Source: Ophiura sarsii | Taxonomy: Eukaryota > Echinodermata > Ophiuroidea > Amphilepidida > Ophiuridae | Length of the DNA stretch: 64,000 nt | Assembly (NCBI GenBank): GCA_035610835.1 | Contig: CM069443.1 | Span: 58,111,266 to 58,175,265, forward strand | Reading direction: 5' to 3' | Shown: positions 4,430 through 51,866 of the stretch, one piece after another | How the letters are laid out: each line of letters begins with the position of its first letter | Numbering within the stretch: position 1 is the stretch's first letter | Position numbers and translations under genes: made by a program | Notes under the pieces: generated by a model | Databases searched by the model: none | Seen by the model: only the letters and a program-made list of their open reading frames with translations | Told to the model about the DNA's origin: nothing

Positions 4430-6772
4430 TTACTTGATACTTGATAGTTGTAATCCTTTTACAGCTCCTACGGGGCTAAACTAGGATGTGTGCGGTGCGT
4501 TGACGTCGACAGCCATTGGTGCGCGAAAAAATAAATAATTGAAGTGGAAGGTGAAAACAAACATCACAAGACGACGAAGATAACAGGGAACTCAAGGTGC
4601 ACTATATACAAGGTGTTGCCAATCTAAAGGAGTCTGGTGCCAGGTGTCGGAAGCAGTACTCTGATGACTGGTAGAGCTGCTTTCTGGAAAACTGCGACCG
4701 AGGGGGAGTTTACTGCAGTGGATGGCAATTGGTTCCAGATACGGATGGATCGTGGGAAATATGACAATCTGTAGGCTTCTGTTGATGTTGAAGGGAGTTG
4801 ATATTTAAGGTCGTGATCCTTTCTTGTAAAGTGAGTGGCCGGAATAACACATGGTGGAAATGTAATGTTCACGAGTCTGTAGTGGATTTTGTAGAACATC
4901 GTGCTCTGGTGCAGTAGACGACGTGTGTGTAGTGTATCCCAACCCAGATTGGTGACAAGTGGTGTTACAGGAGTGGTGCGTCGATAGTCACGGTGGACGA
5001 ATCTTGCAGCAGCCCTCTGAACTTTCTCCAGTTGGTCCACTTGGGTATTTGCTGTTGGATTCCAAGCTTCAGAGGCGTACTCTAGCCGGGGACGTACCAG
5101 AGACTCATAGGCTCTTGCTTTGACGTCTTTTGTGCACGGGCCTAGTGTTCTCCGGAGGAGACCCAGTGTGCGGTTTGCTTTCTTTGCGGTGTTTTGGCAA
5201 TGGGTGTTCCAGCGGAGATCTTTGGCGATAGAGATACCCAGGTAGTCATGATGGTCTACATGGTTTAGTGGTTTGCCATGGATGGTGTATTCAAAGTGGC
5301 TGGGATTTCTTTTGCGTGAGATGCTTAGAATTGCGCACTTGTTGACGTTGAAGTCCATCAGCCAGTCTTTGGACCACTTTGCGAGTATTTGTAGATCGTC
5401 TTGAAGTACCTGGTGATCATGCGCAGAATGTATTTCTCTGTATACAATGCTATCGTCAGCAAAGAGTCTGATGTTTGATTGGATGCTGTCCTGTATGTCA
5501 TTTATATACAGCAAGAATAACGCAGGACCAAGTACAGATCCTTGGGGGACTCCTGATGTCACATCTTCCCAGGATGAGTGTTGACCATTTACAGAGACTG
5601 CCTGGGTGCGGTTGTTGAGAAAGGCGTTTATCCAAGTGAGAGTTTGCCCTCGAATCCCGTAGAAGTCTAACTTGGCGGACAGGTGTGGGTGGGAAACTCT
5701 ATCAAACGCCTTGCTAAAATCTAGTAGAATGACATCTGTCTGACCTCTGTGTTCTAAAGTTGTGGCCCAGTCATGTATTGATGTTAGCAGTTGGGTGACT
5801 GTTGAGAGGCGTTCTCTGAAGCCATGTTGAGAGTCCAGTAGGATTTTATGTTGGCTTAGGTGCTTGGCAACATGGCTCAGGACGATGTGTTCTTGGATTT
5901 TGCAGCAAAGGCATGTCAGGGATATTGGTCTGTAGTTGGCAGGGTCAGACTTCTCACCTTTCTTGTAGATACCAGTGACCAGGGCTTTCTTCCACTGGGA
6001 GGGAACCACACCAGAGTCGAGAGACTGTTGGAACAAGAAAGTGAGTGCAGGTGCAATTTCCTCTGCGACGATCTTCAGGAGTCGTGGTGGGATCTCGTCA
6101 GGGCCGCTAGCTTTGGAAGGATTTAGCTGTTTGAGCTGTTTAATGACGCCCTCCTGATGGATAGTAAGGTTTGGTATGTCCGGGAATGGTGAAGAGCCTT
6201 TATTGGGGATATTGCTAGCCACACAGGGGTTGAAGACTGACTTGAATTGTGTGTTCAAGGCGGTGGCTTTGTCTTTGTCATTTATACAATACTTGGACGG
6301 AGTGCGTAGTGCTGGTATGCCCAGATTACTTGTTCTCATAAGTTTCACGTAGGACCAGAATGTTTTAGGTTTGTCAGTGAGACTACCCCCTATTATGTTA
6401 TTGACATAATTTACGTGGGCACAACGTATGAGTTTTGCTAGACTATTCCTGAAGATACGGAAAGTTTTCCAATGAGTGGATGAGCTTAATTTTCTTGCCA
6501 GTGTGTATAGCCTGTCACGTTTTCTCATTTTTCGTTTGATTTGTGGCGTTATCCATGGCACGTGTCTTTTGCCCCCGCTCATTTTGGAAGGTATGTGTGA
6601 GTTCATAAGATCTTTCAGGAAGTCACAGATTTTTCTCCAGTTTGTATCCACACTATTGTCCTCTGGATTTGAGGATATGAACTTATGTGAAAATTCCTTG
6701 GTAAGTTTTTGGAGTTTTTCTGGGTCAGCTTTTTTGAAGTTTGGAACTTATTATGATGGAACCTATTATGAT
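4430..6772 (-). mobile_element. 5'-truncated CR1/jockey-like LINE
   Basis: This is a minus-strand non-LTR retrotransposon. Its 3' end carries a short (TATCAAG)n microsatellite tail, seen on the plus strand as TACTTGATACTTGATAG at 4,431. It contains most of ORF2 but no endonuclease domain, so the 5' end is truncated near 6,772. Both boundaries can be set by comparing the flanks with the near-identical host repeat at 6,840-7,000: left flank CCAAGTCTAT, right flank GCATTGATAAC. No polyA tail is present. Confidence 0.8.
4624..6747 (-). CDS. LINE reverse transcriptase (partial ORF2)
   Basis: An open frame of about 707 codons encodes the linker, reverse transcriptase and C-terminal region of a non-LTR ORF2. 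Numbering from the GTG at 6,651: WITPQIKRKMRKRDRLY (33-49) is the linker after the missing endonuclease; NYRPISLT is at 239-246; LLDFSKAFDRVS (309-320) holds the first catalytic Asp; GVPQGSVLGP is at 367-376; FADD (397-400) holds the catalytic Asp pair; YLGISI is at 470-475; LEKVQRAAARF is at 541-551. All catalytic residues are present and the frame is uninterrupted, so the copy is fairly young. It starts after a stop at 6,748 and has no natural start codon, as expected for a 5'-truncated insertion. Clade CR1/jockey-like is inferred from motifs. It cannot retrotranspose alone without the endonuclease. Confidence 0.85.
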   Translation of the reverse strand, partial: VPNFKKADPEKLQKLTKEFSHKFISSNPEDNSVDTNWRKICDFLKDLMNSHIPSKMSGGKRHVPWITPQIKRKMRKRDRLYTLARKLSSSTHWKTFRIFRNSLAKLIRCAHVNYVNNIIGGSLTDKPKTFWSYVKLMRTSNLGIPALRTPSKYCINDKDKATALNTQFKSVFNPCVASNIPNKGSSPFPDIPNLTIHQEGVIKQLKQLNPSKASGPDEIPPRLLKIVAEEIAPALTFLFQQSLDSGVVPSQWKKALVTGIYKKGEKSDPANYRPISLTCLCCKIQEHIVLSHVAKHLSQHKILLDSQHGFRERLSTVTQLLTSIHDWATTLEHRGQTDVILLDFSKAFDRVSHPHLSAKLDFYGIRGQTLTWINAFLNNRTQAVSVNGQHSSWEDVTSGVPQGSVLGPALFLLYINDIQDSIQSNIRLFADDSIVYREIHSAHDHQVLQDDLQILAKWSKDWLMDFNVNKCAILSISRKRNPSHFEYTIHGKPLNHVDHHDYLGISIAKDLRWNTHCQNTAKKANRTLGLLRRTLGPCTKDVKARAYESLVRPRLEYASEAWNPTANTQVDQLEKVQRAAARFVHRDYRRTTPVTPLVTNLGWDTLHTRRLLHQSTMFYKIHYRLVNITFPPCVIPATHFTRKDHDLKYQLPSTSTEAYRLSYFPRSIRIWNQLPSTAVNSPSVAVFQKAALPVIRVLLPTPGTRLL

Positions 6773-14299: not shown

Positions 14300-15388
14300 A
14301 TGGATGTTGAGAATTTTTCACGATAGGGTGAAAGACTATAACAAAAGAAGAAAAAAAACTTGTCCATATCCCTCATGTCTTGAAAATCTACCGTATGCTA
14401 AATGCTGGTACTTCGGTAAGTTCTGTCATTTTATCTACAAGTTCACACACGTGACATGATACCTTATTTTTCTATTCCGCAGAACCACGAATGTGAAGAG
14501 GAATGTCAGTGGAGACGAGAACAGAAATCTCGCCGCGATACCTTACGAACTCAGTGCGAGATTCTAGGAGCCGAAACTTCAATCACTGAAGAATGGGTCA
14601 AGAGAAACAAGAATAAACTGCATAATGTGATTTATTCAGATAAACACCGGGCCTTGTTCTGTTTAATACCAAAAGCCGCTTGCACTAACTGGAAACTGGC
14701 GTTTTTGATTATGGATGGACATGTTAACATGACCATGCCAGAGCCAATCCGTATACACAAAAGGGGGAGAGCAGGGGCGTATAGTTTAGCGACGTCATCG
14801 CTGTCGGTGGAAGAGACGTTATATCGATTGAATAACTACCAATCGTTTATTACGGTACGCAATCCGTTCTCCAGATCATTGTCGGCATTCGTGCAGAAAT
14901 TCGTACAATGTCGTGATGTCAAGGAAGGTCGAATGGTACGGCGAAAATATGGGAATCCTATCCATCAAAAGTACGCGGCTGATAGCAATGATCAGACCGT
15001 GAAGCAAAACTCCAGCAAAGATCAAGGGGCTACTTTTGAGGAATTCGTCAAATATTTAGGAGATCCGACTGTCAAGTTCAAGCATCATAGTTTCGAAAAT
15101 CATTGGATTCCCATGAACGATTCATGTTTTCCCTGCGCGGTAACATATGATTACATAGGGAAAATGGAGAGCTTTCATACAGACACAAAGTATATACTAA
15201 ACCAGCTCGGTGAACCCCGTCTGCTGGATACGGTGGCGGCCAAATCTTCCCACGCAACAAATCAGAGTTCTGTGAGCTTCGATAAGTATTTCTCCACTTT
15301 GACTAGTGAAGACATTGATGGACTACGGTGGAGATACCAGGCTGATTTAAAACTATTTGGGTATAGGGAGGAGCCATCATTTTATTAA
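14300..15388 (+). pseudogene. carbohydrate sulfotransferase-like gene, copy A, exon 1 frame-broken
   Basis: Exon 2 (14,483-15,388) is fully open, encodes 301 residues, and is nearly identical to copy B. It carries PKAACTNWK (5'-phosphosulfate loop), VRNPFSRSLSAF (3'-phosphate loop) and YDYIGKMES, the ordered signatures of the Sulfotransfer_2/HNK-1 sulfotransferase family (Golgi enzymes moving sulfate from PAPS to sugar chains). The 67-bp intron (14,416-14,482) keeps a consensus donor GGTAAG and acceptor TTCCGCAG. In exon 1, one extra A after ATGGATGTTGAG creates a stop at codon 9, and a second +1 indel lies in the A-rich run near 14,350. The copy B frame therefore cannot be read. The gene is probably inactive unless a different first exon is used. 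Compared with copy B it has Ala for Val in the PAPS loop and one extra Arg. Confidence 0.8.
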
Positions 15389-36541: not shown

Positions 36542-37625
36542 ATGGATGTTGAGATTTTTCACGATAGGGTGAAAGGCTATAACAAAAGAAAATACCCCCT
36601 TGTCCATATCCCTCATGTCTTGAAAATCTACCGTATGCTAATTGCTGGTACTTCGGTAAGTTCTGTCATTTTATCTACAAGTTCACACACGTGACATGAT
36701 ACCTTATTTTTCTATTCCGCAGAACCACGAATGTGAAGAGGAATGTCAGTGGAGACGAGAACAGAAATCTCGCCGCGATACCTTACGAACTCAGTGCGAG
36801 ATTCTAGGAGCCGAAACTTCAATCACTGAAGAATGGGTCAAGAGAAACAAGAATAGACTGCATAATGTGATTTATTCAGATAAACACCGGGCCTTGTTCT
36901 GTGTAATACCAAAAGTCGCTTGCACTAACTGGAAACTGGCGTTTTTGATTATGGATGGACATGTTAACATGACCATGCCAGAGCCAATCCGTATACACAA
37001 AAGGGTGGGAACAGGGACGTATAGTTTAGCGACGTCATCGCTGTCGGTGGAAGAGACGTTATATCGATTGAATAACTACCAATCGTTTATTACGGTACGC
37101 AATCCGTTCTCCAGATCATTGTCGGCATTCGTGCAGAAATTCGTACAATGTGATGTCAAGGAACGTCGAATGGTACGGCGAAAATATGGGAATCCTATCC
37201 ATCGAAAGTACGCGGCTGATAGCAATGATCAGACCGTGAAGCAAAACTCCAGCAAAGATCAAGGGGCTACTTTTGAGGAATTCGTCAAATATTTAGGAGA
37301 TCCGACTGTCAAGTTCAAGCATCATAGTTTCGAAAGTCATTGGATTCCCATGAACGATTCATGTTTTCCCTGCGCGGTAACATATGATTACATAGGGAAA
37401 ATGGAGAGCTTTCATACAGACACAAAGTATATACTAAACCAGCTCGGTGAACCCCGTCTGCTGGATACGGTGGCGGCCAAATTTTCCCACGCAACAAATC
37501 AGAGTTCTGTGAGCTTCGATAAGTATTTCTCAACTTTGACTAGTGAAGACATTGATGGACTACGATGGAGATACCAGGCTGATTTAAAACTATTTGGATA
37601 TAGGGAGGAGCCATCATCCTATTAA
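36542..37625 (+). CDS. carbohydrate sulfotransferase-like protein, copy B (two exons, intact)
   Basis: Predicted product is 338 residues. Exon 1 (36,542-36,655) and exon 2 (36,723-37,625) are joined in phase 0 across a 67-bp intron with donor GGTAAG and acceptor TTCCGCAG. Signatures in order: PKVACTNWK (101-109), the 5'-phosphosulfate-binding loop; VRNPFSRSLSAF (163-174), the 3'-phosphate-binding site; and YDYIGKMESF (259-268) with a Cys pair just before it. This order defines the Sulfotransfer_2 family (HNK-1, chondroitin and dermatan sulfotransferases), which move sulfate from PAPS to glycans in the Golgi. Start choice: first ATG after the TATA, with an in-frame TGA just upstream. Oddity: no hydrophobic membrane anchor is visible at the N-terminus, whereas family members are usually type II membrane proteins, so an upstream exon may be missing or the protein may be soluble. 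The acceptor sugar cannot be told. Confidence 0.85.
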
Positions 37626-40572: not shown

Positions 40573-41402
40573 TACACTCTTAGAAGGTCAGGATCAAATA
40601 TGAGACGAAAAGGATCAATTTTGATCCAGAAGCGGTATCACATATGAGCTTACCCTTTCCGGATCAAAGTGATCCGACAAGCAGGATCAAAAAGTTTGAT
40701 CCGAAATGGGATCAAATATTTCTGTCAAATGATACTGAAACGGATCAAAATAATGATCCTGCTTGTCGGATCACTTTGATCCGGAAAGGGTAAGCTCATA
40801 TGTGATACCGCTTCTGGATCAAAATTGATCCTTTTCGTCTCATATTTGATCCTGACCTTCTAAGAGACCCACTGCAGACTATATATCGAGTGCAGTAAGC
40901 TTACTACATCGTGTAGGCCTAGTACATCGCAGTGATCGTGACATTTTGTGAGGAGCATTTTGACCGAAAATCGTACTGATGGCACTGGTCAGGTACAAGA
41001 AATTTGTTCACAAGAATAGAGCATGTTCAAACATAAAAAATAAAACTACTTTACCGACAAAATCATGTAACATTTTACAGATTAGACTGGATAACTTACC
41101 GCGGTATTTCACCCTTGTTTCAATGGCGACCGAATTCAAAAGATCGTCTGCTTGTCGTCTATCGGTTTGCGAAAGAGTGACGTCAGTCACCTATTGACCA
41201 ATGAACTTTTTCATCGAATTGATCCGGAAATCAGATCAAAGTTGATCAAGGTGAATTTGATCCGTTTGTTGATATCTATCTGGAAACGGATCAAAACGAT
41301 CCGAAAACGGATCAAAACGATCCGAAAATGATCCTTAAAGGATCAAAACAAAGTGAGCCGGAAATCTACTCATGTATTTGATCCTGACCTTCTAAGAGTG
41401 TA
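40573..41402. mobile_element. 826-bp TIR element rich in GGATCAAA
   Basis: The ends are CACTCTTAGAAGGTCAGGAT and its reverse complement, with 25 matching bases at 40,575 and up to 41,400. The flanks are TA on both sides. Copy A shows the uninterrupted site ACGGTATGACCAC near 20,150. The left 290 bp is a further palindrome of GGATCAAA-type units, and the right has direct GGATCAAAACGATCC units. A central segment of about 340 bp is not repetitive. The TA duplication points to a Tc1/mariner-like or related superfamily. No transposase is seen. Confidence 0.8.
41008..41193 (-). other. exon-like segment inside the TIR element
   Basis: On the minus strand an ATG near 41,190 opens a frame starting MTDVTLSQTDRRQADDLL. 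It runs about 30 codons to CCGCGGTAAGTTATCC near 41,100, a strong splice-donor match. ATTGG and TGACGTCA motifs lie at or just before the start. This could be a captured first exon and promoter or chance; no family was recognised. Confidence 0.3.
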
Positions 41403-49405: not shown

Positions 49406-49863
49406 GGATAGTATCCCTAAATTAGGATTCCACTGGGAAAAAATTAGAAAGAAGCTGATTTCAACTGATAATGGTAGGTATGGGTGTCGAGTTTTACCAA
49501 AAAAAAGGGAGGAAGGATGGGGGGTGGGGAAATATTTTTTTTTCGGGGGGTCATTGAAACTGGGGGGGTCATTGGCCCAAATGTTGCTTAAAGTATATCG
49601 TGTTTGGTATCAAATGAAAGGAAATTTAATTTAAAACATGTATAATGCCATTAATTTTGTCAGATAATCATCCTGTGAAAAGTTACACTTGATTGAAGAC
49701 ATATAGTGCTGGTTACAAGGAATCGGCAAGCTCAGATTAATGTTATGCAATTTATATGTGTTGTAGCGTCTCTGTTGGTATGGGAATCATTGGGTCTAAT
49801 TAACCCAGGGGACCTTGTTTTATGCACATGATACAAACATAGGCATGAGACAGATTGATCATC

Positions 49864-50241
49864 ATGGCAGAACGAGATGAAGGAATTGAAGAGCTATTCA
49901 TCTTTGAACTTACCCCAGTTCCTACATCTCTGTTCACTATGGACCGTATGATGAGGAAACCCCCAAAACATGAATTTGGCAGGATGCTCAAAGAAACAGC
50001 CACAAAGCTTGACCTAGACATGAATACCAAGATGCATGTTGTTGATGGAGGATGGCTACTTCATCAGGTAAAGTGGACCACCGGTGCAACCATCAAGTCC
50101 ATAGTTGACACCTATGCCAAGTTTGTCCGGGCAAGATTTAAGGAATGTACTGTAGTGTTTGATGGCAATGGGGAAGAACAATCAACGAAGGACCATGAGC
50201 ATATGCGGCGGATGGCTGGGAAGAAGGTTGCGCTAGACTAG
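49864..50241 (+). CDS. FEN/XPG-like PIN nuclease, N-terminal part (frame broken after 125 codons)
   Basis: Starts at ATG 49,864, with an in-frame TGA at 49,846. FIFELTPVPTSLF near the start, then VVDGGWLLHQVKW (59-71), then VVFDGNGEEQSTKDHEH (97-113) follow the order I know from a family of uncharacterised animal proteins. In that family these two Asp residues (here D61 and D100) sit where FEN1/XPG nucleases hold their first two metal-binding Asp. The frame ends in TAG at 50,239. The same protein continues one base out of frame, so this is the first half of a broken gene. Family members I recall are longer at the N-terminus, so an upstream exon or part may be missing. A weak acceptor (GAGACAG) lies at about 49,853. 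Confidence 0.7.
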   Translation: MAERDEGIEELFIFELTPVPTSLFTMDRMMRKPPKHEFGRMLKETATKLDLDMNTKMHVVDGGWLLHQVKWTTGATIKSIVDTYAKFVRARFKECTVVFDGNGEEQSTKDHEHMRRMAGKKVALD

Positions 50242-51190
50242 TGTCTCATCCGAATTGACAGTATCATGCGACAGGGAAGTGTTCCTTGCAAATGAGAACA
50301 ACAAAGGAGCTCTAATCAAAATGATATCCACAGCATTGACAAGCCACGATATCGTTGTACGCCAAGCAAAAGATGATAGTGACACACTTATTGTAAAGAC
50401 TGCAATAGATTTGGTCACAAGTTTGAATACCCCAGTTGTTGTAGTTGCCCAAGACACTGATATATTGGTTTTGCTCTGCTATCATTGCCCCAGTAACTGT
50501 GCTAATTTATACTTGCAATCAGACGTTGATGGTCTTTATGACATCTCTTCCATAGATATCGGTGACCGAGAAGAGTTCCTATTCCAGTATGGCTGGTCTG
50601 GAAATGATACTGTTTCAAGCATTCATGGACATACCAAATGTGCCCTCTACAAGTTCAAATTTCCTGCCAGTGTCATCACTGCATTCACAAACGATATGTC
50701 AACTGTATCTACAATTAAAGCAGCTGGATTAAAGGCAATGCAGATCACATACAGCTGTGGGGATACTCCCATTGAAAGGGTTCGCTATCAGAAGTTCCAA
50801 AAGCAAGCAGCCAAGGGTAAAATTGATCCTGATCGCCTACCACCCACACCAAATGCAACGGTACAACATTCCCTTCGTGTTCATCTCCAAGTTGTGGTAT
50901 GGAAGCATCTCAACACCTCCATACTTGACCCCATTGGAAGAGGGTGGGAGTTGGATAGAAACAAAAAACTCAGACCGAAGATGCTTACCGGTGGTATCGC
51001 CCCAGAAAATCTTCTAAAAGGAATTTGCTGCAACTGCAAGGAAGGGGAGAGGCAGTGTCAAACTATGAAATGTAGCTGCATGAAAGCTGGCATGTCATGT
51101 GTTTCTGCATGTGGAGTGTGCTGTGGACATTGTTCCAATGGAGCAGATAGAACGGAAGAACTTGGAAGTGATGAAGAGGAAACGGAATAA
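50237..51190 (+). CDS. FEN/XPG-like PIN nuclease, C-terminal part with CXC domain
   Basis: Open from just after a stop at 50,234 to TAA at 51,188. Ahead of TTG 50,255 the frame reads TSVSSE, and it continues the upstream frame if one base near 50,239 is discounted. Counted from 50,255: AKDDSDTLIVK (38-48) and VVVVAQDTDILVLL (61-74) hold the acidic pairs of the PIN/FEN site; GWSGNDTVSS (113-122) matches the family's GCDT motif with Asn for Cys and the Asp kept; LPPTPNATVQHSLRVHLQ (195-212) is the family's conserved linker. The C-terminus (about 256-294) is a Cys-rich CXC/tesmin-like module: KGICCNCKEG, MKCSCMKAGM, ACGVCCGHCS. These features suggest a structure-specific or DNA-binding nuclease. 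Activity is unproven, and the frameshift probably inactivates this copy. Confidence 0.75.
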   Translation, partial: TSVSSELTVSCDREVFLANENNKGALIKMISTALTSHDIVVRQAKDDSDTLIVKTAIDLVTSLNTPVVVVAQDTDILVLLCYHCPSNCANLYLQSDVDGLYDISSIDIGDREEFLFQYGWSGNDTVSSIHGHTKCALYKFKFPASVITAFTNDMSTVSTIKAAGLKAMQITYSCGDTPIERVRYQKFQKQAAKGKIDPDRLPPTPNATVQHSLRVHLQVVVWKHLNTSILDPIGRGWELDRNKKLRPKMLTGGIAPENLLKGICCNCKEGERQCQTMKCSCMKAGMSCVSACGVCCGHCSNGADRTEELGSDEEETE

Positions 51191-51745
51191 TCAAGCCATT
51201 TGTTTTCGCTAAACTTGTAGGGCCTATAATGAGCTTACTGTCAGTTTCTGTCAGTATACATTATCAGTATATTTAATCAACAAATTGTTGTATTTGTACT
51301 TAATGTGCCCTGACCAATGTCGATATCAGCCTTAAAACAATGTGATACACTTTGATGGATACATAGTAACGTATTGTATTATGATAGATTTCAAGTTTTC
51401 TTTAGAAACTGTAATAAACTCGCCGATTCCATATAACCAGCACCAACGTCTTCAATCTAGTGTAACTTTTCACAGGATAATAGAATGACAAAATGAGCAT
51501 CACATCTGGTGTTTTAAATTAAATTCCCTTTCATTTGATACCAATCACGACATACCTTGAGCAAAATTTGGGTAAATGACCCCCCGGTTTCAATGACCCC
51601 CAAAAAAACAATTTCCCCACCCCCTATCCGCCCTCACTTTTTTTTGGTGATTAATGACACCCATACTTACCATTAACCGTTGAAATCAGCTTCTTTCTAA
51701 TTTTTTCCCAGATTTGCTCAAAATATAGCTAATTTAGGGATACTA

Positions 51746-51866
51746 GGAGGGGAAGCTATATATATGATTTACTACATGTATTTCGGCCACTTGAGACTCG
51801 CAACAAAGACTTTTTATACATTAGCGCTCGTTCATCCGGTGTGCCGGTGTATGGAAACACAACCTC
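51746..51866. other. right flank of the TIR element
   Basis: No feature was recognised. Confidence 0.35.

What the first reader, a model, noticed from the sequence alone, without database searches (positions are those of the whole stretch)
49409..51745. FEN/PIN-CXC nuclease gene carried between long terminal inverted repeats: possible undescribed transposon type
Seen: inverted repeats of about 325 bp at both ends, a GGA direct repeat just outside, and a single coding region in between. Its product has the acidic residues of FEN/XPG PIN nucleases (VVDGGW, VVFDG, DDSDTLIV, AQDTDILVLL, GNDT) and a C-terminal CXC module. Known: this protein family is widespread and often multicopy in invertebrates but, to my knowledge, has no assigned role. 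Inference: the family may be the mobilising enzyme, or a cargo, of a DNA transposon class whose nuclease is of PIN/FEN type rather than DDE.
Basis: partly seen in the sequence, partly recalled or inferred. Interest (0 to 1): 0.88.

Follow-up and report, generated by a model that had tools for sequence, protein, structure and literature searches.

The report
Internally deleted copy of DDE-nuclease transposon
This stretch is a broken, shortened copy of a repeat-ended DNA transposon; a longer relative in the same genome also carries a predicted cut-and-paste transposase next to the predicted flap-type nuclease, so it is likely a member of the known Academ (AcademX) group and not a new nuclease-only kind of transposon.

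Summary
Window 49409-51745 has terminal inverted repeats (TIRs) of about 325 bp, GGA on both outer sides and one nuclease-CXC gene whose frame is broken near 50240. Of 17 copies with both ends located, 15 have an exact 3-bp duplication (control 6 of 272), and one has a paralogous empty site. It is a real mobile family.

A nuclease-bearing lineage with 3-4 bp duplications is in print as AcademX; its reference sequences could not be compared here. Best reading: a non-autonomous internal-deletion copy of an AcademX-like transposon.

The parts
49409..51745 (+). Whole element, 2337 bp, non-autonomous copy; gene on + strand
   Evidence: TIR ends and flanking GGA; collinear with the L009 element except for an internal 4.2-kb gap
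49406..49408 (.). Left copy of the 3-bp target-site duplication (GGA)
51746..51748 (.). Right copy of the 3-bp target-site duplication (GGA)
49409..49730 (+). Left (gene 5' side) terminal inverted repeat, begins TAGTATCCC
   Evidence: 40 scored matches in own genome
51419..51745 (-). Right (gene 3' side) terminal inverted repeat
49850..49852 (+). Junction of the internal deletion: 3 bases (ACA) shared by both sides; L009 has 4,235 bp more here
   Evidence: BLAST pieces W 301-744 and 742-2637 against the L009 element; letters
49864..50241 (+). First part of the predicted FEN/PIN-type nuclease domain (profile positions 1030-1151 of 1479), frame ends at 50241
50255..51190 (+). Second part of the predicted nuclease domain and CXC (profile positions 1163-1477)
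51020..51137 (+). Cys-rich CXC module (CCNCKEGERQCQTMKCSCMKAGMSCVSACGVCCGHCSN)
   Evidence: translation; five Cys columns there conserved in 85 of 87 full-length homologues; the name CXC is recalled and comes also from homologue names

Best explanation
The window element is a copy of a terminal-inverted-repeat DNA transposon with 3-bp target duplications that lacks 4.2 kb present in a longer relative, including the ORFs of the predicted DDE-type transposase, and keeps only the predicted FEN-like nuclease and CXC end of a gene whose frame is broken, so in this form it likely moved, if at all, with a transposase supplied in trans. In long members zinc finger, DDE-like region, FEN/EXO1-type nuclease and CXC form one protein of about 1,480 aa (shown for homologues and for two other loci of this genome; collinear in pieces in L009). 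Inferred mechanism: the DDE centre cuts and joins the element ends with a 3-bp stagger; the FEN-like domain trims flap or hairpin intermediates at the excised ends or donor gap; the CXC and zinc fingers hold DNA. Most likely this is a member of the AcademX lineage of the Academ superfamily (inferred from nuclease plus 3-bp duplication; not compared with reference sequences).
For: 3-bp duplications exact in 15 of 17 two-ended copies against 6 of 272 mismatched flank pairs; paralogous empty site for copy L019 with one trimer at the junction; L009, 6575 bp, same ends, TSD TTA, with collinear ORFs that match profile positions 83-168, 182-837, 836-950, 954-1477; window copy = L009 minus 4,235 bp with a 3-base shared junction; D454, D609, E867 invariant in 87 of 87 full-length homologues; 119 of the 120 listed homologues have DDE-like plus nuclease parts in one protein, 82 have all four parts (the query spanned both parts, which favours this); single ORFs of 1542 and 1494 aa with all parts in the same genome; nuclease fold EXO1/FEN1/XPG; AcademX: nuclease, 3 or 4 bp TSD (PMC10045372, passages).
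Against: The DDE fold was not confirmed: the nuclease domain filled the fold-search lists, and profile search of solved structures gave no transposase. Pfam gives only DUF6589 as a sensible match, below its cut-off or absent in the seven long proteins tried. L009 has a frame break in the nuclease part, so no intact copy of this family was seen. For L029 and L030 no TIR or TSD was found in the stretch held (L029 has only 70 bases behind its ORF). None of the 36 hits of the nuclease-only query carries the DDE-like part, and only 2 of the 48 hits of the 602-aa query carry both at the 60% coverage set; those searches admitted only proteins of 0.55-1.75 times the query length. The Academ reference sequences (Repbase; Kojima 2020) were not available. 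7 of 40 TIR hits had no gene match.
Confidence: 0.8

Rival explanations
1. The family is a DDE plus FEN-nuclease superfamily distinct from Academ, not yet named; the window copy is still a deletion derivative of it.
For: Pfam knows the transposase part only as DUF6589, below cut-off; in the held library no paper joins Academ (whole word) with XPG and none has DUF6589.
Against: AcademX is described as nuclease-bearing with 3-4 bp TSDs, which fits what was measured here.
Confidence: 0.15
2. One reading: a transposon class mobilised by a PIN/FEN nuclease in place of a DDE transposase.
For: The window copy holds only nuclease and CXC between its repeats; the nuclease part evolved under purifying selection (dN/dS 0.19 against L009; 17 synonymous and 11 replacement changes on the window branch).
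Against: A longer relative with the same ends carries the DDE-like ORFs; fused proteins in 119 of 120 listed homologues; window gene is frame-broken.
Confidence: 0.03
3. A host nuclease gene fell into an unrelated repeat-ended element (cargo).
For: Seven of 40 TIR hits without a gene match.
Against: Gene part found inside the repeats at 19 of 20 fetched loci and as the C-terminal part of the transposase protein in other animals.
Confidence: 0.02

Closest known systems
AcademX lineage of the Academ superfamily (DNA transposons)
   Same: A nuclease encoded by the element; 3-bp target duplications (PMC10045372 gives 3 or 4 bp; passages seen). That the AcademX nuclease is of XPG type is recalled, not seen in a call.
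   Different: Window copy lacks the transposase part and is frame-broken. Sequence membership not compared (Repbase not on hand, Kojima 2020 not held).
AcademH lineage of the Academ superfamily
   Same: Sister lineage with an extra DNA-processing enzyme.
   Different: Helicase in place of nuclease and 9 or 10 bp duplications; here 3 bp and no helicase among the Pfam matches.
KolobokE / KolobokP (DDE transposons with accessory nucleases)
   Same: DDE transposase accompanied by a nuclease (lambda-exonuclease-like or His-Me finger; PMC9587614, passages).
   Different: Nuclease here is predicted FEN/EXO1-type and fused to the transposase; duplication 3 bp. The Kolobok TTAA target is recalled.
EXO1 / FEN1 / XPG 5' nucleases
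   Different: Identity 8-16% in the rows shown; carried by a transposon, with C-terminal CXC.

Membership tests
AcademX | 3-4 bp target-site duplication | tested here: met
   15 of 17 two-ended copies exact 3 bp; L027 4 (or 3 if its last repeat base is a substitution); L012 no match, left end rearranged; control 6 of 272
AcademX | Element encodes a nuclease beside the transposase | tested here: met
   Predicted FEN/EXO1/XPG fold; in L009 and homologues collinear with the DDE-like region. Activity not tested.
AcademX | DDE transposase (RNase H fold) | tested here: inconclusive
   D, D, E invariant in 87 of 87; strand/helix order of the model fits RNase H with helical insertion, by my reading; fold searches filled by the nuclease
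AcademX | Sequence similarity to reference Academ transposases | not testable with these tools
   Repbase not on hand; Kojima 2020 not held
AcademX | Window copy itself encodes the transposase (autonomous member) | tested here: not met
   4,235 bp of L009 absent; gene covers profile positions 1030-1477 only and is frame-broken
AcademH | 9-10 bp target-site duplication and helicase | tested here: not met
   3 bp; no helicase among Pfam matches of L009, L029, L030 proteins
CACTA/EnSpm (feature recalled) | Ends begin CACTA | tested here: not met
   Ends begin TAGTATCCC or TAGTAACCC in 15 of 17 copies; L012 left and L027 right ends deviate but are not CACTA
PIF/Harbinger (feature recalled) | 3-bp TWA target | tested here: not met
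   Duplications GGA, ATG, AGC, GCA, ATC and others, besides TTA and TAA
   L009, L029, L030 and 119 of 120 listed homologues carry the DDE-like region; that it is a DDE enzyme is predicted

The most novel reading that the evidence does not exclude
The fused FEN/EXO1-type nuclease is not an accessory but an obligatory second active site of the transpososome: the DDE centre joins ends while the flap nuclease frees them, making this a two-nuclease transposase, and short nuclease-CXC derivatives of the window copy's kind can act as trans regulators of the full-length element.
Probability: 0.15. Interest if true: 0.65.

Novelty: new member of a known kind. Interest (0 to 1): 0.33.

Why it matters
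It tells what an animal protein family, some members of which are annotated 'Tesmin/TSO1-like CXC domain-containing', most likely is: the transposase-nuclease of a mobile element and its decayed pieces. It also gives a genome with a longer relative, rearranged derivatives and an empty site, in which the role of the fused flap-type nuclease in transposition can be tested. The claim of a new, DDE-free transposon type is not borne out.

Tried and rejected
Rejected: nuclease-only transposon class (longer relative has the DDE-like ORFs). Rejected: chance or tandem-repeat artefact. Rejected: cargo of an unrelated element (fused proteins).

Led nowhere: Pfam on the two window ORFs, no family; solved structures with the single window sequence, none; profile A3 against solved structures, one weak TetR chain only; NCBIfam, no meaningful match. 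TIR/TSD of L029 and L030 within the stretch held, none found. Among the 50 rows shown for the 1116-aa model no transposase appeared, because one domain filled them; this says nothing against a DDE fold. Literature, held library only: AcademX occurs in one paper, PMC10045372, passages seen. Academ as a word start with transposon and XPG nuclease: three papers, seen as listing, on other subjects; Academ as a whole word with XPG: none; DUF6589: none; TSO1-like CXC with transposable element: six papers, seen as listing, on plants; Academ with helicase and so on, 17 papers, listing; Academ, Novosib, Zisupton, Sola, nuclease, three papers, listing. Passages of PMC9587614, PMC10799480 and PMC5753468 name Academ or AcademH but do not describe its nuclease; PMC12730594 does not hold the word.

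Not done because the genome machine did not answer: genome-wide search for the 17-base terminal pattern, for the right repeat, for the L009 transposase protein, and the outer flanks of L030. So repeat-only derivatives were not counted.

Full report
Observation. The element is as described: inverted arms 49409-49730 and 51419-51745 with 17 identical outer bases, GGA on both outer sides, and a gene read in two pieces, 49864-50241 and 50255-51190, because its frame is broken near 50240. The window lies in contig C3 of a 1.57-Gb genome of 748 contigs.

A mobile family. The left repeat has 40 scored matches (268 candidates) in the genome, the window's two ends included; by pairing they are 35 elements. 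I fetched 20 further loci, the best matches. With the window copy, 17 copies had both ends located (16 of the 20 loci; L014, L023, L024 and L028 were dropped because one end was not placed). Their ends begin TAGTATCCC or TAGTAACCC, except the left end of L012 and the last base of the right end of L027. Exact 3-bp duplications flank 15 of 17; L027 has 4, or 3 if its last repeat base is a substitution; L012 has no match of that length. Left and right flanks of different copies match in 6 of 272 pairs.

Empty site. Of 15 joined-flank queries against the window and loci L009-L030, 3 of 56 rows span the junction. One, copy L019, aligns along its whole 400 bases (356 of 426 columns, 84%) with an unoccupied relative at L019:1562-1978, where one trimer (TAG there, TAC on both sides of the insertion) stands at the junction: a clean insertion with 3-bp duplication. 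A second L019 row reaches a 70%-identical stretch in L016; the third, L009 against its own left flank, is a short local match that I do not interpret.

Gene and repeats go together. A gene match lies within 8 kb inward of 33 of 40 TIR hits (65 of the 146 protein rows were used), that is at 28 of 35 elements. L028, counted as without, has coding-part DNA. DNA similar to the coding part is inside 19 of 20 fetched loci; L024 is the exception. In 16 of the 20 loci a gene piece starting near element position 491-515 lies within 65 bases of an opposed piece starting at 1527 (not in L009, L012, L014, L024), so a rearranged, decayed form with shared breakpoints has multiplied (the multiplying is inferred).

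The longer relative. L009 (contig C6) is 6575 bp with TSD TTA. On its gene strand it has ORFs of 166 aa (Cys-rich), 602 aa and 170 aa and two overlapping nuclease-CXC ORFs of 410 and 152 aa, whose overlap marks a frame break. The window copy matches positions 1-439 (87.5%) and 4675-6575 (92.5%) of that element; 4,235 bp between are absent, and three bases (ACA, 49850-49852) belong to both sides. The missing stretch holds the zinc-finger, 602-aa and 170-aa ORFs and the first 256 bases of the nuclease ORF frame.

What the missing part is. Homologues of the 602-aa ORF include proteins with Pfam DUF6589 (P0066, P0078) and proteins in which it is followed by the nuclease (P0069) or by nuclease and CXC (P0078). 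The same genome has single ORFs of 1542 and 1494 aa with everything in one frame (L029, L030). A search with L030 gave 372 proteins, of which 120 are listed, among them named ones from corals, molluscs, a sponge, a sea spider and a sea cucumber. Of these 120, 119 carry the DDE-like and nuclease parts together and 82 all four parts (the query covered both parts, which favours this). Of the 36 hits of the nuclease-only query none, and of the 48 hits of the 602-aa query 2, carry both parts; those searches excluded proteins longer than 1.75 times the query, and many hits are short pieces. In 87 full-length proteins D454, D609 and E867 (numbering of P0201) never vary. L009's ORFs cover profile positions 83-168, 182-837, 836-950 and 954-1477 in order; the window's cover 1030-1151 and 1163-1477.

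Selection. Between window and L009, over 428 codons of the nuclease-CXC part, dN/dS is 0.19. With the decayed copies as outgroup, the window branch has 17 synonymous and 11 replacement changes, the L009 branch 12 and 7; 7 of 54 differences could not be placed. So the nuclease was kept under constraint for most of this history; whether any of it followed the deletion cannot be told.

Mechanism and filing. Most likely: DDE centre cuts and joins with a 3-bp stagger (inferred), the FEN-like domain processes flaps, gaps or hairpins left by excision (inferred), and the zinc fingers and CXC bind DNA (inferred). The window copy is a non-autonomous deletion product. The nearest description in print that I saw is AcademX: PMC10045372 says AcademH makes 9 or 10 bp and AcademX 3 or 4 bp duplications, a difference that seems related to the helicase and nuclease they encode (passages seen). 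The original account (Kojima 2020) is not held, and reference sequences could not be compared, so membership is likely, not shown.

Verdict. Real transposon, a correct eye for the nuclease and the repeats, but a wrong guess about the enzyme: the nuclease is the tail of a larger predicted DDE transposase that this copy lacks.

Noticed in passing
window 14456-15388 and 36696-37625 (+): Two single-ORF sulfotransferase genes (PF03567), nearly identical by eye, 22 kb apart, pointing to a recent duplication.
   Followed up: partly
window 4624-6651 (-): 675-aa reverse transcriptase ORF (RVT_1, E 1e-31), probably a non-LTR retrotransposon.
   Followed up: partly
window 40577-40866: Two 113-nt arms, 100% complementary, 64 nt apart: perhaps a young hairpin or foldback element.
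   Followed up: no
L010-L013, L015-L023, L025-L028: A rearranged derivative: reversed nuclease-gene fragment opposed to a second piece starting at element position 1527, with the same breakpoints in 16 of 20 fetched loci (L012 among those listed is interrupted and not counted).
   Followed up: partly
L012 6006-6770 (-), L018 2035-2502 (-): ORFs that look reverse-transcriptase-like by eye inside two copies, which may explain their extra length as later insertions.
   Followed up: no
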